From assembly GCA_003056285.1 (NCBI GenBank), contig NDWU01000015.1, forward strand, positions 1-40,371: a stretch of DNA of 40,371 nt, read 5' to 3'. The number at the start of each line of letters is the position of its first letter. The first letter of the stretch is position 1. This DNA comes from Candidatus Terraquivivens tikiterensis (lineage in GTDB: Archaea > Thermoproteota > Nitrososphaeria_A > Caldarchaeales > Wolframiiraptoraceae). The position numbers were made by a program, and so were the translations under genes. The notes beneath the pieces were generated by a model. It had not been told where the DNA came from, ran no database searches, and saw only the letters and a program-made list of their open reading frames with translations. Below are positions 34,215 through 40,308 of the stretch, piece by piece.

Positions 34215-35034
34215 CCCCCTATCGCCTTTTTTGGTAAAGGCCTACGTTGCCATACTTCTCATGGCAGGGATATCCATAAGCGGCTCCGTATCAGTGCTGA
34301 GGGGAATCGCCTACATGCCAGCCGAGGCTGCCCATGCGGCTTTGGGCGGAGCAGCGCTGGGAATCTTGGTCTCTCATGTAACGAACATGACGTTAGACCC
34401 ATACGTAGTAGCGGCAATGTTCGCGAGCGTAACTACGCTTTTTGCGGGGTACGTGGGAAGGAGGGGTGGCCCAGAGGCTATCGCCGCCGCGCTCGCCGGT
34501 GCGCTTACGCTTGGTGTTTCCATCTACGCTTTCGTAAGGTACATCTTGCCCGCAAACCTAAGGGTCGTTCTGGATGGCTACCTTGTTGGCGACATACTAA
34601 TCCTGAAGGACTCGGAGATAGCCATGCTGTCCATCCTGACCATAGCTTACATGATTATTTTTACCCTGTTTTACAACGAGATAGTTTACGTGTGCTTCGA
34701 CCCAGAAGGTGCCGAGGCCATGGGTATGAACGTCTCGCTCTATGATTTTATGATATTTTTCTTGATAGGCTTGGCTGGTAGCGTGGCCACGAAGGCCGTT
34801 GGCAGCCTTCTCGTATATGCCCTCGTGATAGCGCCGGCCATAACGGCAAAGGAGCTCTCAGGAAGCGTCAGGGGAATGCTGGTGCTTACTTCGGCCATCA
34901 CACTCTTAGCAGGCTATGGGGGATTGGCGGTATCCCTCCTGTTCGACATGCCAAGCGGCGGCTCGATAGCGGTAGTCGCCAGCCTGACGTATGTCGGTAC
35001 GATGCTGGGCAAGAGGCTTTTCCAAAAGCGGTGA
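34207..35034 (+). CDS. Metal ABC transporter permease (ZnuB-like)
   Basis: GSVSVLRGIAYMPAEAAHAALGGAALGI...DPEGAEAMGMNV...KAVGSLLVYALVIAPAITA. Confidence 0.93.
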   Translation: MVDPLSPFLVKAYVAILLMAGISISGSVSVLRGIAYMPAEAAHAALGGAALGILVSHVTNMTLDPYVVAAMFASVTTLFAGYVGRRGGPEAIAAALAGALTLGVSIYAFVRYILPANLRVVLDGYLVGDILILKDSEIAMLSILTIAYMIIFTLFYNEIVYVCFDPEGAEAMGMNVSLYDFMIFFLIGLAGSVATKAVGSLLVYALVIAPAITAKELSGSVRGMLVLTSAITLLAGYGGLAVSLLFDMPSGGSIAVVASLTYVGTMLGKRLFQKR

Positions 35035-35078
35035 AGGTATAATTCAAGGCTTATTATTATGGTTGGGTAAGGGAAGAT

Positions 35079-35172
35079 GGGCCGGTAGCGTAGCGGAAGC
35101 GCGCCCGCCTCGCTCTTAAGGGCAAGGAGGAAACGCGGGAGGTCGCGGGTTCGAGTCCCGCCCGGTCCACCA
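35079..35172 (+). tRNA. tRNA-Ala (CGC), intron-containing, CCA encoded
   Basis: GGGCCGG/CCGGTCC acceptor with G3:U70; CCCGC-CTCGC [~19-nt insert TCTTAAGGGCAAGGAGGAA] AC-GCGGG; GCGGG-TTCGAGT-CCCGC T-arm; A-CCA. Confidence 0.9.
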
Positions 35173-35252
35173 ATTTTTTGCGGATTGTGTTACCTGGGAA
35201 CCCCACATTCTACGTCTACGCGAGTTTTAGATAATTAGATAAAATTTAAATA

Positions 35253-35269
35253 GTATACAAATTGTATAC
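35253..35269. promoter_or_regulatory. Perfect inverted repeat, candidate VapB operator
   Basis: GTATACAA-A-TTGTATAC, 5 bp before the vapB ATG and directly after an AT-rich TATA-like stretch. Confidence 0.75.
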
Positions 35270-35274
35270 CCGTC

Positions 35275-35505
35275 ATGAGTGAGGTCTTCTCCATTAGGAT
35301 ATCTAAGGACGTTAAAAAGAAAATGGAGTTACTTAAGGATGTTGTCGATTGGAACGAGGAGGTTAGACGTTTCATCGAGTCGCGGGTTGATGAATTCTAT
35401 AGATCTAGGGTCATAGAGGAGGTGAGGAGCGTCATCATGAAGCTGCCGGAAACGCCTAGGGGGTCTGTTACAAGGTATGTGAGGGAGGATCGTGATAGTT
35501 ATTGA
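35275..35505 (+). CDS. vapB: VapB-type antitoxin
   Basis: MSEVFSIRISKDVKKKMELLKDVVDWNEEVRRFIESRVDEFYRSRVIEEV; overlaps the vapC start. Confidence 0.8.
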   Translation: MSEVFSIRISKDVKKKMELLKDVVDWNEEVRRFIESRVDEFYRSRVIEEVRSVIMKLPETPRGSVTRYVREDRDSY

Positions 35506-35587
35506 TGCTTCGTCCTTAATCAAATATCTACTAAGGGAGGAGGGTTGGCGTCTAGTAGAGGGCAACCTCCTACAAGGAGCTTTAACC

Positions 35588-36766
35588 GTTGTGGGATTCA
35601 TAGACTTTCATCCCTTCCCCTCACCTCTACCGTTAGAGGTTCATGGAGGGCTTTCGGGGGCAACGGCGCTCCCCTCATCCTGAGCATGTTCAAACAGGCA
35701 ATTACATCCCTATCATCCTCATATCCGCATTCGCAACTTACTAGCCTATGCCCATTCGGTGCTAGTTTTCCACCACATACCGGGCATAGGCTCGAAGTAC
35801 CTTTAGGGTTGACGTAAATTACTGGTAATCCGTTTAATCTAGCCTTGTACTCGATGTAGAATTGGAGTTTCCTGAAGTTCCATGAATGTAACCTACGGTT
35901 CAGCCTTCTACCGTAGTCTATTCTTTTCCTTATTCCTTTCAAATCCTCCATAACTACACCCATCTTATGCTCACTGGCGAAACTTACAATCTTTTTCGAT
36001 ATCTTATGGCATTCATCCGCGGCTTTGTGCTTCCTCCTGCCAGAATACTTTTTCAACAACCTCTCTGCCGTCTTAGGCTTAAACTTACTCAGCTTTTGAA
36101 TGCTTCTGATAATGTTAAAGTATGTTGTATGAGTAGTTCTCAAGTTGCTTTCGATTTTTAGAATGTGTGGGTTTGAGCTTACGGCTGTGACATTGGACTC
36201 GTTTACATCTATCGCTATCCAGTCTTTCGGGTTAGTGAGGTCTACATCCTTCTTGAATGGTATGATGATTTTAGCCTCGTTTATTGTTACTTCACCTGTT
36301 TTGAGCTTGCCCTCCCTCCAAGCGTCTATAAACTTCCTCTGGTATTCACCATACTTTAAGTCTATGTAGAGGAATCTTCTAGGCTTAACTGAGATCCTAA
36401 TACTGTCGCCATAGAATTTGTATAGTTGCGGATCCAACTGCATGAAGAGCTTCCTTGCTTCAGGCTTGCCCTCCCTACTTCTCCGCCTATGGTTCTTGAG
36501 CATCGCCAAGGCTATCTTGCACGCTGAGTGGCAGAAATGCGTCGAGTAATCCCAGCGCTTCTTCCACTCCTCGTATACGCCCTTCCTAAGCCTAGCGTAA
36601 GATGTAATCTTCCTCCTATAGGCGTAGTCTATGCAAAAGTTGATCATATCCCTGAAGTCCTCTAAGAGCCTCCTGACCTCGCCGTTGATGCTATAGCTGA
36701 AAGGGACGCCTAAGATCACTTCCACATAAGAGTATACACTAAAACATCGGAAACTGCCGACTTACC
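35588..36766 (-). mobile_element. IS200/IS605-type TnpB-only element inserted in vapC
   Basis: 1179-bp insert between the vapC halves; contains only tnpB; boundary ambiguous by ACC microhomology; GGGAT/ATCCC hairpin near the right end. Confidence 0.8.
35598..36725 (-). CDS. tnpB: TnpB RNA-guided nuclease, apparently intact
   Basis: RuvC-I IAIDVNESNVTAVS, RuvC-II VVMEDLKGI, zinc finger CPVC...CECG, RuvC-III DDRDVIACLNML. Confidence 0.93.
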   Translation of the reverse strand: MEVILGVPFSYSINGEVRRLLEDFRDMINFCIDYAYRRKITSYARLRKGVYEEWKKRWDYSTHFCHSACKIALAMLKNHRRRSREGKPEARKLFMQLDPQLYKFYGDSIRISVKPRRFLYIDLKYGEYQRKFIDAWREGKLKTGEVTINEAKIIIPFKKDVDLTNPKDWIAIDVNESNVTAVSSNPHILKIESNLRTTHTTYFNIIRSIQKLSKFKPKTAERLLKKYSGRRKHKAADECHKISKKIVSFASEHKMGVVMEDLKGIRKRIDYGRRLNRRLHSWNFRKLQFYIEYKARLNGLPVIYVNPKGTSSLCPVCGGKLAPNGHRLVSCECGYEDDRDVIACLNMLRMRGAPLPPKALHEPLTVEVRGRDESL

Positions 36767-37189
36767 CTAGATCATGCGAGGAAAGAAGTTTTAAATGCTG
36801 TATGGAAGCATTACCCGATCAGCAAGGCGATCGGCAAGGAGCTGGCTATCGAGCTGCATGAGGCTTTCAAAAAGCTCGTGGACGCTAAAGTACTCATACT
36901 GGAAGATAAGGAAAAGTACGTCGAAAAAGCACTCGAGATATCGCTAACGCATGGCCTGACTTTCTACGATTCTCTATACGTATCTCAAGCGTTGAAATGG
37001 GGAAAACTATTGACGAGTGACAGATTACAAAAACAAGTAGCAGAGAGGATGAATGTAGAAACGATCTTCATAGAATAGAAAGGCTATCTGGGCAATGTGC
37101 GCTTGGATAGAGGAACGATGTTAGCTTAAACAAGCAGTAGGAGCCGCAGGATCCCTCTTACGATATCTACCGGAACAGGAAGTATAATC

Positions 37190-37480
37190 ACGTTAACATG
37201 AGCATCATTTTGGCGGCATGCCTTTTATGTTGCACACGGTAAAGAAATTGTAAAAGGGCTATAGTCCAGCTTATCCAAATCCAATCGATACCATGGATTC
37301 GTATCTACCATCGTCAACGATTTGTTACAGCATACCATTAGGGCTTTCTTCAGCGATTCCAGGGCAGTTTGTATGAAGCTTCCAGGCAGACCGTAATATC
37401 CTCTAAGCTCAGGCCGGTCGCGAAGAGAACGATGGCATAGACACTATCAAAAGGAGCGGCTATCGAAGCCTGAATAGCTA
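37190..37480 (-). pseudogene. Degraded transposase remnant (IS6-like)
   Basis: Minus-strand GSFIQTALESLKKALMVCCNKSLTMVDTNPWYRLDLDKLDYSPF resembles the 'VDxxPWYxxAL..L' region of archaeal IS6-like transposases; stops in flanking frames. Confidence 0.35.
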
Positions 37481-37603
37481 AGGACGGCGCTCGCTAGATG
37501 ATCGGATACATGCACCGTTGGGGAGGACAAGCGAGGCCAAAGACCCAGCGAGAAAAGCTTGGGTAGAAATTGTGCAAAAGTTTAATTTCAGGTCAAGATA
37601 GGA

Positions 37604-39526
37604 ATGGAAGAGTCCAAAAAGGCTGAAAACAGTGCGGAGCATTTAACGATGCTAGACGAGAAGCGCTACCTGAAGCATCCACTGTTGAAGGAGAAGGCTG
37701 TAGAGGACAGGCTATACCAGAACAGGATTCTGGAAAGGGCTAGGTTCAATAACACGCTCGTCGTTCTGCCCACGGCCCTCGGAAAAACGATCATAGCCCT
37801 GCTGCTGGCCGTTGAGAAAGCAGGAGAGGGCAAAGTGTTCTTTCTCGCGCCCACAAGGCCGCTGATCCAGCAGCACCACCGGACTTTCCTTGAAAAAACC
37901 TTGTTTGGTAAGGACGAGCTTGCCCTCGTTACTGGGCGCTATCCGCCAAACCATAGAGCAGCCCTGTACAGTAAGGCTAGGATCGTTTTTGCAACCCCAC
38001 AGTGTGTTTGGAACGACCTGAGGAGTGGGCTCTTGAGGCTTGACGACGTCTCGCTCATGATCTTCGACGAGGCCCATAGGGCTAGGGGAAACTACGCCTA
38101 CGTGGGCATAGCCTCGCGGTACCTTAGGGAGTGCCGCAAGCCCTTGGTTTTGGGCTTAACTGCCTCGCCCGGCGGGAGCGAGGAAAAAATAGCTGAGGTC
38201 TGCAGAAACCTCGGTATAACGGCCATAGAGCACCGCACGGATAAGGACGATGACGTTAGGCCCTACGTTCAGCCCATAGAGGTTGAGTGGCGAAGGGTAA
38301 AACTTCCTGAACAGTATCTGGCCGTAAGGGAAAGGCTTAGGCAGATGCTCGTCAAGAGGATCAAGGGCTTGCAGGCCCTGGGCGTTTTGACTGACAAGCA
38401 GCCTGCTTCCATAACGCGGCGGGACCTCGTGGAGCTTAACGAGGAGCTTCAGAGGAGGCTCGTGGGCGGCGAGGGCGGGTTCCTATACCAGCTTAAGGTC
38501 GAGGCAACGGCGGCCCTTAGCATAGCCCACATGATAGAGCTAATAGAGTCGCAGGGGCCTGAAACCCTCGAGGCCTTCATAGAGAAAAGCCTAAAGCGCA
38601 TGGCAACGGAGGGGAGCAAGGGCCACAGGTCGATACTGAACGACCCGCTCTTCGCGGAGGCCAGAATGTTGCTTAGAAGCTGCATGGCAGCAGAAAACCC
38701 AAAAGTAAAGGAGCTCTTCAAAGTTTTGGAGGCCCAACTTCAGGCTAAGCCCGACTCGAGGCTTATCGTTTTCACCCAGTACCGCGACACGGTAAACGCC
38801 CTAGTTAAAGCGCTTAGCGGAAACCCTAGGCTTAGGGTTGAGCGCTTCGTCGGCCAAGGGGAGAGGGAGGGCGACCCTGGGATGAGCCAAGAGGAGCAGC
38901 GGATAGTCCTTGAAAAGCTTAGAAGCGGAGAAGTGAACGTGCTGATCGCTACGAGCATAGCCGAGGAAGGCTTAGACATACCAGAGGTCGACCACGTAGT
39001 CTTCTACGAGCCCGTGCCTAGCGAGATACGCTACATACAGCGGAGGGGCAGAACTGGAAGACGCGTAGCCGGAAAGGTAACAATCATAATAGCCGAAGAT
39101 ACCGTGGACGAGGCCTTCTACTGGTCGAGCATATCAAGGGCCAAGAAGATGAGGCAAATAATCAGCCAGCTCGACAGGAAGCTGCCAGAAATGCTGAAGT
39201 CAACTGCCAAGCAGGTCGTGACCCTAATGGACTACCAGCCCCAAACGAAGCAAGCCGGCATGAGCACCCAAACGCTCCAGGCACAAGGGGCCCTGCCAAA
39301 AAAGGAGCTTTGGAAGCCCAAAACGTTACAAACGAAGGGCTTAAGCCAAGCCATAAGATGGCTCATGGAAAACCTTCCGAGCAAAACAATGCAGATAGAA
39401 GAGGTTGTCAGGCGAGCTTACGAGGATGAAGGCCTGGAAAAGACTGTAGTCGAAACTGCCATATGGTGCCTAATACAGCAGGGCCAAATATACCAGCCAG
39501 AGCCGGGAAAAATAAGAAAAGTATAA
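37604..39526 (+). CDS. Hef/FANCM-like SF2 helicase without XPF nuclease domain, with C-terminal winged-helix-like segment
   Basis: LYQNRILERARFNNTLVVLPTALGKTIIALLLA, IFDEAHRARGNYAYVGIA, LGLTASPG, RLIVFTQYRDT, VNVLIATSIAEEGLDIPEVDHVVFYEPVPSEIRYIQRRGRTGR; no ERKxxxD nuclease motif. Confidence 0.9.
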   Translation: MEESKKAENSAEHLTMLDEKRYLKHPLLKEKAVEDRLYQNRILERARFNNTLVVLPTALGKTIIALLLAVEKAGEGKVFFLAPTRPLIQQHHRTFLEKTLFGKDELALVTGRYPPNHRAALYSKARIVFATPQCVWNDLRSGLLRLDDVSLMIFDEAHRARGNYAYVGIASRYLRECRKPLVLGLTASPGGSEEKIAEVCRNLGITAIEHRTDKDDDVRPYVQPIEVEWRRVKLPEQYLAVRERLRQMLVKRIKGLQALGVLTDKQPASITRRDLVELNEELQRRLVGGEGGFLYQLKVEATAALSIAHMIELIESQGPETLEAFIEKSLKRMATEGSKGHRSILNDPLFAEARMLLRSCMAAENPKVKELFKVLEAQLQAKPDSRLIVFTQYRDTVNALVKALSGNPRLRVERFVGQGEREGDPGMSQEEQRIVLEKLRSGEVNVLIATSIAEEGLDIPEVDHVVFYEPVPSEIRYIQRRGRTGRRVAGKVTIIIAEDTVDEAFYWSSISRAKKMRQIISQLDRKLPEMLKSTAKQVVTLMDYQPQTKQAGMSTQTLQAQGALPKKELWKPKTLQTKGLSQAIRWLMENLPSKTMQIEEVVRRAYEDEGLEKTVVETAIWCLIQQGQIYQPEPGKIRKV

Positions 39527-39574: not shown

Positions 39575-39979
39575 ATGAGTTCCCTGAGGCCTGAGGCAGA
39601 GGATTGGTTCTACGAGGCATGCGTTGATCTAGAGGAGGCGAAGGATGCTTTCAGCCGTGGAAGGTATAACTGGGCATGCTTCGCTGCGCAGCAGGCCGCG
39701 GAGAAGGCGCTCAAGACAATGTACCTTGTGGCAAGGAAGAAGCGTTTTCCAAAAACCAACGACCTAGTAGAGCTTTACATGGAGTTGGAGGGAGAGCTTA
39801 CGATAGAAGGCTCTGATAAGATAGGGCTTTTATCATCCTTCTACGAGATGGCCAGGTACCCTAACGCGGGGATGCGTAGGCCATCTAGGTCCATATCCAA
39901 GGAGGTAGCGGAAGAGATGGTTAGGCTCTCTGAAAGCATCGTGAAGAAGGTGGGCGAGAAGGTTGGGCTCCGTTGCTGA
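39575..39979 (+). CDS. HEPN-domain protein
   Basis: AEDWFYEACVDLEEAKDAFSRGRYNWACFAAQQAAEKALKTMYLVARKKRFPKTNDLVELY. Confidence 0.88.
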   Translation: MSSLRPEAEDWFYEACVDLEEAKDAFSRGRYNWACFAAQQAAEKALKTMYLVARKKRFPKTNDLVELYMELEGELTIEGSDKIGLLSSFYEMARYPNAGMRRPSRSISKEVAEEMVRLSESIVKKVGEKVGLRC

Positions 39980-39992
39980 CCTGCGGATACCA

Positions 39993-40308
39993 TTGCCGAT
40001 TAAGCAAAAGTTGGAGAAGGCCGTCAAAGCGCTGAGAGACATATGCCCTGACGCCCGAATACTTCTCTTCGGAAGCCTCGCCAAAAGGTGACTGGCTCGA
40101 GGACAGCGACATAGACCTGATAGTCATCTCAGAGTGCTTCAGCAAGATGGAATACGTAACCAGGGTTATGCTACTGAAGTCGAAGTTGTTCGAGATGGGG
40201 CTTTCAAGAGTGCACGTCATACCGCTCACGGTTGAGGAGTTTGAGGTCCAGAAGAGGAGGAGCGTCGTCGTGTCGGATGCTGTTGAGTACGCCGTTGAGA
40301 TCCTTTAG
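39993..40308 (+). pseudogene. MNT-type minimal nucleotidyltransferase with apparent +1 frame disruption
   Basis: Frame 1 ...DARILLFGSLAKR* (TGA 40089-40091); +1 frame GDWLEDSDIDLIVISECFSKMEYVTRVMLLKSKLFEMGLSRVHVIPLTVEEFEVQKRRSVVVSDAVEYAVEIL*. Together GS...D.D MNT motif. Confidence 0.8.

What the first reader, a model, noticed from the sequence alone, without database searches (positions are those of the whole stretch)
35492..37078. vapC toxin split by a TnpB element at a point where precise excision restores an intact PIN toxin
Seen: the two vapC halves join in frame after removing 1179 bp (393 codons), giving MIVIDASS...QGALT|LDHARKEVLNAVW...TFYDSLY...LLTSDRL, with all four expected PIN acidic positions. 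The element carries an intact tnpB and no tnpA. Known: IS200/IS605 elements excise and insert without target duplication. Inference: the toxin is off while vapB remains, and reversible excision could reactivate it.
Basis: partly seen in the sequence, partly recalled or inferred. Interest (0 to 1): 0.72.

Follow-up and report, generated by a model that had tools for sequence, protein, structure and literature searches.

The report
TnpB element inserted in vapC toxin
In this archaeal genome a small mobile element carrying an RNA-guided nuclease (TnpB) has landed cleanly inside the toxin gene of a toxin-antitoxin pair; its guide RNA now matches that toxin gene, so it should protect its own position there rather than act as an on/off switch, and this is an ordinary kind of insertion with an unusually clean outline.

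Summary
A 1179-bp tnpB-only IS200/IS605-type element (35586-36764, tnpB on the minus strand) lies inside vapC of a vapBC pair. It splits codon 32 after the first base. Nothing of vapC is lost or duplicated: intact vapBC pairs in two related genomes run straight through the same point (VTLDHA), with the same 14-bp vapB/vapC overlap. Element ends were fixed independently from ~20 other copies of the same TnpB subfamily: right end ..AACGG, left end preceded by AGG or GGG. The right end encodes a covariation-supported omegaRNA scaffold with a pseudoknot. The following bases, the predicted guide, are antisense vapC and occur once in the genome. The toxin is therefore broken now, recently by its lack of decay, and vapB remains.

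The reversible-switch reading is only partly supported. Precise removal would leave vapC in frame, but the only TnpA found in this 97%-complete genome belongs to an element with a different left end, no empty allele was found, and from published work TnpB should cut the restored vapC and copy the element back. The best reading is selfish retention at a dispensable toxin gene: a new member of a known kind, modest interest.

The parts
35275..35505 (+). vapB antitoxin gene, intact (76 aa)
   Evidence: NCBIfam NF050799 TA_anti_VapB_Sulfo 78.5 bits vs cut-off 60; 79% and 67% aa identity to vapB of L023 and L024
35492..35585 (+). vapC 5' part (codons 1-31 plus first base of codon 32)
   Evidence: 74% aa identity over 31 codons to intact VapC of L023 and L024; BLAST 1.5e-11
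35586..36764 (-). tnpB-only IS200/IS605-type element, 1179 bp; LE at the 36764 side, RE at the 35586 side
   Evidence: ends conserved in ~20 copies of the subfamily; interruption point relative to orthologues
36765..36769 (-). transposon-adjacent motif read 5'-TAGGG on the minus strand, immediately 5' of LE
   Evidence: GGG next to LE in 14 of 16 distinct copies, AGG in the other two; TAGGG commonest (tally by eye)
35598..36725 (-). tnpB, 375 aa, start GTG; RuvC D/E/D motifs and zinc-finger cysteines present
   Evidence: NF040570 guided_TnpB 135.6 bits vs cut-off 100; PF07282 67.9 bits; dN 0.083, dS 0.886 to nearest genomic copy
35586..35674 (-). predicted omegaRNA scaffold overlapping the tnpB 3' end (GGGG/CCCC stem with CCGTTG loop pairing to terminal CAACGG, P2, right-end hairpin P4)
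   Evidence: helix covariation over 17 distinct rows; fold -33.1 kcal/mol, z -1.88
35566..35585 (-). predicted guide segment TTAAAGCTCCTTGTAGGAGG, antisense to vapC codons 25-32
   Evidence: lies directly 3' of RE; only one match in the genome with up to 3 mismatches
36765..37078 (+). vapC 3' part (rest of codon 32 to stop), carries E39, D100, D117
   Evidence: 66-69% aa identity to L023/L024 over 102-103 codons, no stop or frameshift

Best explanation
A tnpB-only, TnpA-dependent IS200/IS605-family element inserted at a TAGGG site inside vapC of a horizontally variable vapBC module. Shown: exact ends, no loss of vapC codons, intact tnpB of a subfamily under purifying selection, a structured right end, and vapC-derived sequence directly after that end. 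Inferred: the toxin is inactive; TnpB bound to an omegaRNA guided by antisense vapC would cut any element-free copy of this vapC allele next to its GGG motif, so that repair from a sister copy restores the insertion. The element persists because the disrupted gene is dispensable and because TnpB removes empty alleles; it is not a toxin on/off switch.
For: Ends and motif shared by copies across several archaeal lineages. Orthologous vapBC uninterrupted in G009 and G032. omegaRNA helices covary: P2 98.8% paired vs 80.5% with shuffled arms, P4 95.3% vs 62.1%, pseudoknot 98% vs 92.8%. tnpB dN/dS about 0.09. vapC C-half shows no decay: pN 0.175 and 0.173 to the orthologues, which differ from each other by 0.156 over the whole gene. 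Guide unique in genome. Mechanism of TnpB retention at the donor joint from Karvelis et al. (PMC8612924) and gene-drive behaviour in plasmids (PMC11870625).
Against: No expression, cleavage or excision data. This copy diverges from every other copy in the assembly (nearest 83% nt identity), so its source is unseen and activity is not demonstrated. The helix segmentation for the covariation count was made by hand. One genome only, a fragmented assembly of 39 contigs.
Confidence: 0.8

Rival explanations
1. Reversible toxin switch: a TnpA in trans excises the element precisely at useful frequency, restoring vapC, and reinsertion turns it off again.
For: Frame and PIN residues are preserved on both sides; one full-length TnpA is present in the genome, and its element's right end also ends CCCACAACGG.
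Against: That TnpA element has a different left end, AGAAAG plus a strong ~20-nt hairpin, shared with relatives and unlike the GGG + GTCxGCAGTTTCC left end here. No empty allele in the assembly. Any IS200/IS605 insertion restores its target when excised, so the preserved frame is a family property and no sign of selection for switching. TnpB should act against the empty allele.
Confidence: 0.07
2. Plain dead insertion: the element is immobile and TnpB/omegaRNA inactive here; vapC is simply a young pseudogene on the way to loss, within a variable region after a tRNA gene.
For: No cognate TnpA found; congeners lack a close vapC and carry different genes after the same tRNA; other copies in the genome are broken (L003, L004, L010/L013/L020).
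Against: This copy's tnpB, both ends and scaffold are intact, and the family is under purifying selection.
Confidence: 0.11
3. The split is domesticated: fragments of vapC or antisense readout of the omegaRNA over vapB/vapC have a regulatory role.
For: The predicted omegaRNA reads out of the element into the antisense strand of vapC.
Against: No conservation: no other genome searched carries the insertion; the first start codon of the C-half (GTG 36878) would leave a 66-aa fragment without D5 and E39.
Confidence: 0.02

Closest known systems
IS200/IS605-family tnpB-only elements (IS1341-type); best-studied TnpB is that of ISDra2 from Deinococcus radiodurans
   Same: TnpB with RuvC and zinc finger, no inverted repeats or target duplication, fixed motif 5' of LE, omegaRNA from tnpB 3' end plus RE with pseudoknot and right-end hairpin, guide from flanking DNA
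   Different: Motif here is (T)AGGG rather than TTGAT; no tnpA in the element (ISDra2 has one); lies inside a toxin gene
VapBC type II toxin-antitoxin pairs (NF050799 VapB of Sulfolobus type; PIN-domain VapC)
   Same: vapB match above cut-off, 14-bp overlap, PIN acidic residues in both halves, intact orthologues with same organisation
   Different: toxin gene broken by the element
IStrons (group I intron plus IS200/IS605-type element)
   Same: IS200/IS605-type mobile DNA with precise ends inside a coding gene
   Different: no group I intron or other RNA family found over the element, and the element is antisense to vapC, so no splicing rescue

Membership tests
IS200/IS605 family, tnpB-only (IS1341-type) element | TnpB protein with C-terminal RuvC/zinc-finger domain | tested here: met
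   NF040570 135.6 bits over cut-off 100; PF07282 67.9 bits over 26.3
IS200/IS605 family, tnpB-only (IS1341-type) element | fixed ends with no target duplication and insertion 3' of a short fixed motif | tested here: met
   no vapC bases duplicated beyond the 2-bp ambiguity; GGG/AGG before LE in all 16 distinct copies read
IS200/IS605 family, tnpB-only (IS1341-type) element | subterminal hairpins at both ends | tested here: inconclusive
   RE hairpin supported by covariation; LE hairpin TCGG-CAGTTT-CCGA visible in this copy but imperfect in several relatives
IS200/IS605 family, tnpB-only (IS1341-type) element | mobilised by a Y1 TnpA supplied in trans | tested here: inconclusive
   one TnpA in genome, from an element with a different LE
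TnpB-omegaRNA nuclease systems | omegaRNA scaffold with pseudoknot next to guide | tested here: met
   CCGTTG/CAACGG with CCGTTC/GAACGG compensation in three relatives; architecture as in PMC10097598 and PMC12558985
TnpB-omegaRNA nuclease systems | RNA-guided, motif-dependent DNA cleavage | not testable with these tools
   needs a biochemical or plasmid-interference assay
VapBC toxin-antitoxin | VapB antitoxin upstream of and overlapping VapC | tested here: met
   NF050799 78.5 bits over cut-off 60; 14-bp overlap
VapBC toxin-antitoxin | uninterrupted PIN-domain VapC | tested here: not met
   gene broken at codon 32; PIN domain matched over full length in orthologues L023, L024
IStron | self-splicing group I intron in the element | tested here: not met
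   Rfam search at E <= 1 over 34900-37700 finds no match within the element

The most novel reading that the evidence does not exclude
By sitting in vapC, the element turned TnpB into a nuclease programmed against an intact toxin gene, so that carriers cut reactivated or incoming copies of this vapBC allele: a selfish element acting as guardian against a toxin-antitoxin module, retained partly for that benefit.
Probability: 0.06. Interest if true: 0.6.

Novelty: new member of a known kind. Interest (0 to 1): 0.3.

Why it matters
It is a clean natural case in which the target of a TnpB guide is a gene of known family, so TnpB-driven retention could be read out in a population. The same data argue against taking a preserved reading frame around an IS200/IS605 insertion as evidence of a switch, since such elements leave their target restorable as a rule. 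It also outlines an archaeal TnpB subfamily with an AGGG motif and a covarying omegaRNA.

Tried and rejected
Rfam search of 34900-37700 for a group I intron or other RNA: only the tRNA passed its threshold. Whole genome as file: not available. Search for the guide elsewhere in the genome, with 3 mismatches: only the donor site. Sister element from recent duplication: none, nearest copy 83% nt. MAFFT alignment of the RE misaligned the middle helix between two subgroups, so pairs were counted from hand-cut segments. TnpA of the genome as the obvious excisase: left end differs. Recurrent targeting of vapC: among the ~70 VapC-like matches listed almost all sit in full-length open frames and none was seen split by TnpB. 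In a rough flank scan of 15 copies, whose automatic left edge was off by one or more bases in several, this was the clearest case of a split gene; the others looked intergenic or near gene ends. Literature searches showed no report of TnpB inside vapC in titles or abstracts, but the library is partial.

Full report
The window is one whole contig (C8) of a 1.54-Mb archaeal genome in 39 contigs, 97% complete. The host's phylum includes a Bathyarchaeota genome (loci L059 and L081 share their flanks), so it is GTDB Thermoproteota by inference.

The observation. vapB (35275-35505) is followed with a 14-bp overlap by vapC, whose frame runs from 35492 to 35585 and resumes at 36765-37078; between them are 1179 bp with tnpB on the opposite strand. 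Relatives G009 (L023) and G032 (L024) hold the same pair uninterrupted, with the same overlap. Analysed apart, the two vapC parts match these orthologues at 74% (N) and 66-69% (C) amino-acid identity and meet at residues 31/33, with codon 32 split after its first base. No residue is missing. Intact orthologues score as PIN domains; the window's vapB passes the NCBIfam VapB model.

The element. The TnpB (375 aa) passes NCBIfam guided_TnpB, resembles TnpB/Cas12f structures over the RuvC and zinc-finger part, and has the D (WIAIDVN), E (VVMEDLKG) and D (DDRDVIA) motifs by eye. The genome has 55 TnpB-like matches, five of them at E <= 1e-100, this one included. The subfamily is absent at that level from the other 21 genomes of the family searched and patchy in the phylum (9 of 400 genomes at 1e-120, this one included), with members also in Alkanophaga and Archaeoglobaceae: it moves between lineages. 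Comparing copies fixes the right end at ..AACGG and the left end just after a GGG (14 of 16 distinct copies) or AGG (2 of 16), most often TAGGG (the tally was made by eye). In vapC the motif is TAGGG on the minus strand. These ends, derived without reference to vapC, coincide with the edges given by the orthologues.

The right end as omegaRNA. The last 89 nt of the element form a GGGG/CCCC stem whose loop CCGTTG can pair with the terminal CAACGG, then further helices. Over 17 distinct rows, P2 pairs in 98.8% of cells against 80.5% when 3' arms are shuffled, the right-end hairpin in 95.3% against 62.1%, and the pseudoknot in 98% against 92.8%, with the last pseudoknot pair changed on both sides in three relatives. 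Segments were cut by hand, which favours pairing somewhat. The layout matches the pseudoknot and right-end hairpin described for omegaRNAs. The bases that follow, the expected guide, are antisense vapC codons 25-32 and occur once in the genome. The corresponding stretch in vapC of G009 and G032 lacks the GGG motif and mismatches the guide (by eye), so the guide is specific to this allele.

Age and selection. tnpB differs from its nearest genomic copy by dN 0.083 and dS 0.886. The vapC C-part has no stop or frameshift over 103 codons and a third-position bias like that between the intact orthologues; its pN (0.175, 0.173) barely exceeds theirs (0.156). The insertion is therefore recent relative to that divergence; at 103 codons a few extra changes would go unseen. 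As no near-identical copy is in the assembly, the element came from a copy not seen, or the whole vapBC region arrived already interrupted. The region after the tRNA gene at 35079-35172 varies within the genus, and no close vapC is found in congeners, which fits an acquired segment.

Mechanism. Published work on ISDra2 shows that TnpB cuts the empty donor joint when motif and guide match, and proposes that repair from the sister copy restores the element (PMC8612924); the same nuclease drives such elements through plasmid populations (PMC11870625). Applied here, vapC is off and any element-free copy of this allele should be cut. A toxin gene whose antitoxin stays intact is a tolerable place to land. 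The single TnpA in the genome (C22) heads an element whose left end, AGAAAG plus a strong hairpin, is shared with its relatives and unlike this one, although its right end also ends CCCACAACGG. Excision is thus possible but not shown, and a preserved frame is what an IS200/IS605 insertion leaves in any gene.

Verdict. Observation confirmed, exact and not by chance; interpretation partly supported; a new member of a known kind of insertion. The vapC flanks were not joined, and nothing was folded or designed from a restored toxin sequence.

Noticed in passing
window 35079-35172: ARAGORN calls a tRNA-Arg(TCT), but five congeners have tRNA-Ala(CGC) at the same place after the same permease gene; the window copy carries a ~20-nt insert (TCTTAAGGGCAAGGAGGAAA) in the anticodon loop, so it is most likely tRNA-Ala(CGC) with a lineage-specific intron.
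   Followed up: partly
window 35173 onward; L097-L101: Downstream of this tRNA the congeners carry different genes: a methyltransferase-like gene (L097), a helix-turn-helix regulator (L098 and L101), an integrase-like protein (L099), a superoxide-dismutase-like protein (L100). Functions were judged by eye; it looks like an integration hotspot.
   Followed up: partly
L071 (G000:C32 end): A TnpB right end (..CCCACAACGG) is followed directly by the left end of a second, decayed copy (AAGCCAGCAGTTTCTGAATAG): a tandem insertion, or a trace of an end-to-end junction.
   Followed up: no
G000, whole genome: 55 TnpB-like matches in 1.54 Mb, many at contig ends, against a single TnpA.
   Followed up: partly
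window 39575-40308: A HEPN-domain gene (PF05168, 91 bits) near the contig end, followed by a short open frame that by eye resembles a partner nucleotidyltransferase: a second likely toxin-antitoxin pair close by.
   Followed up: no
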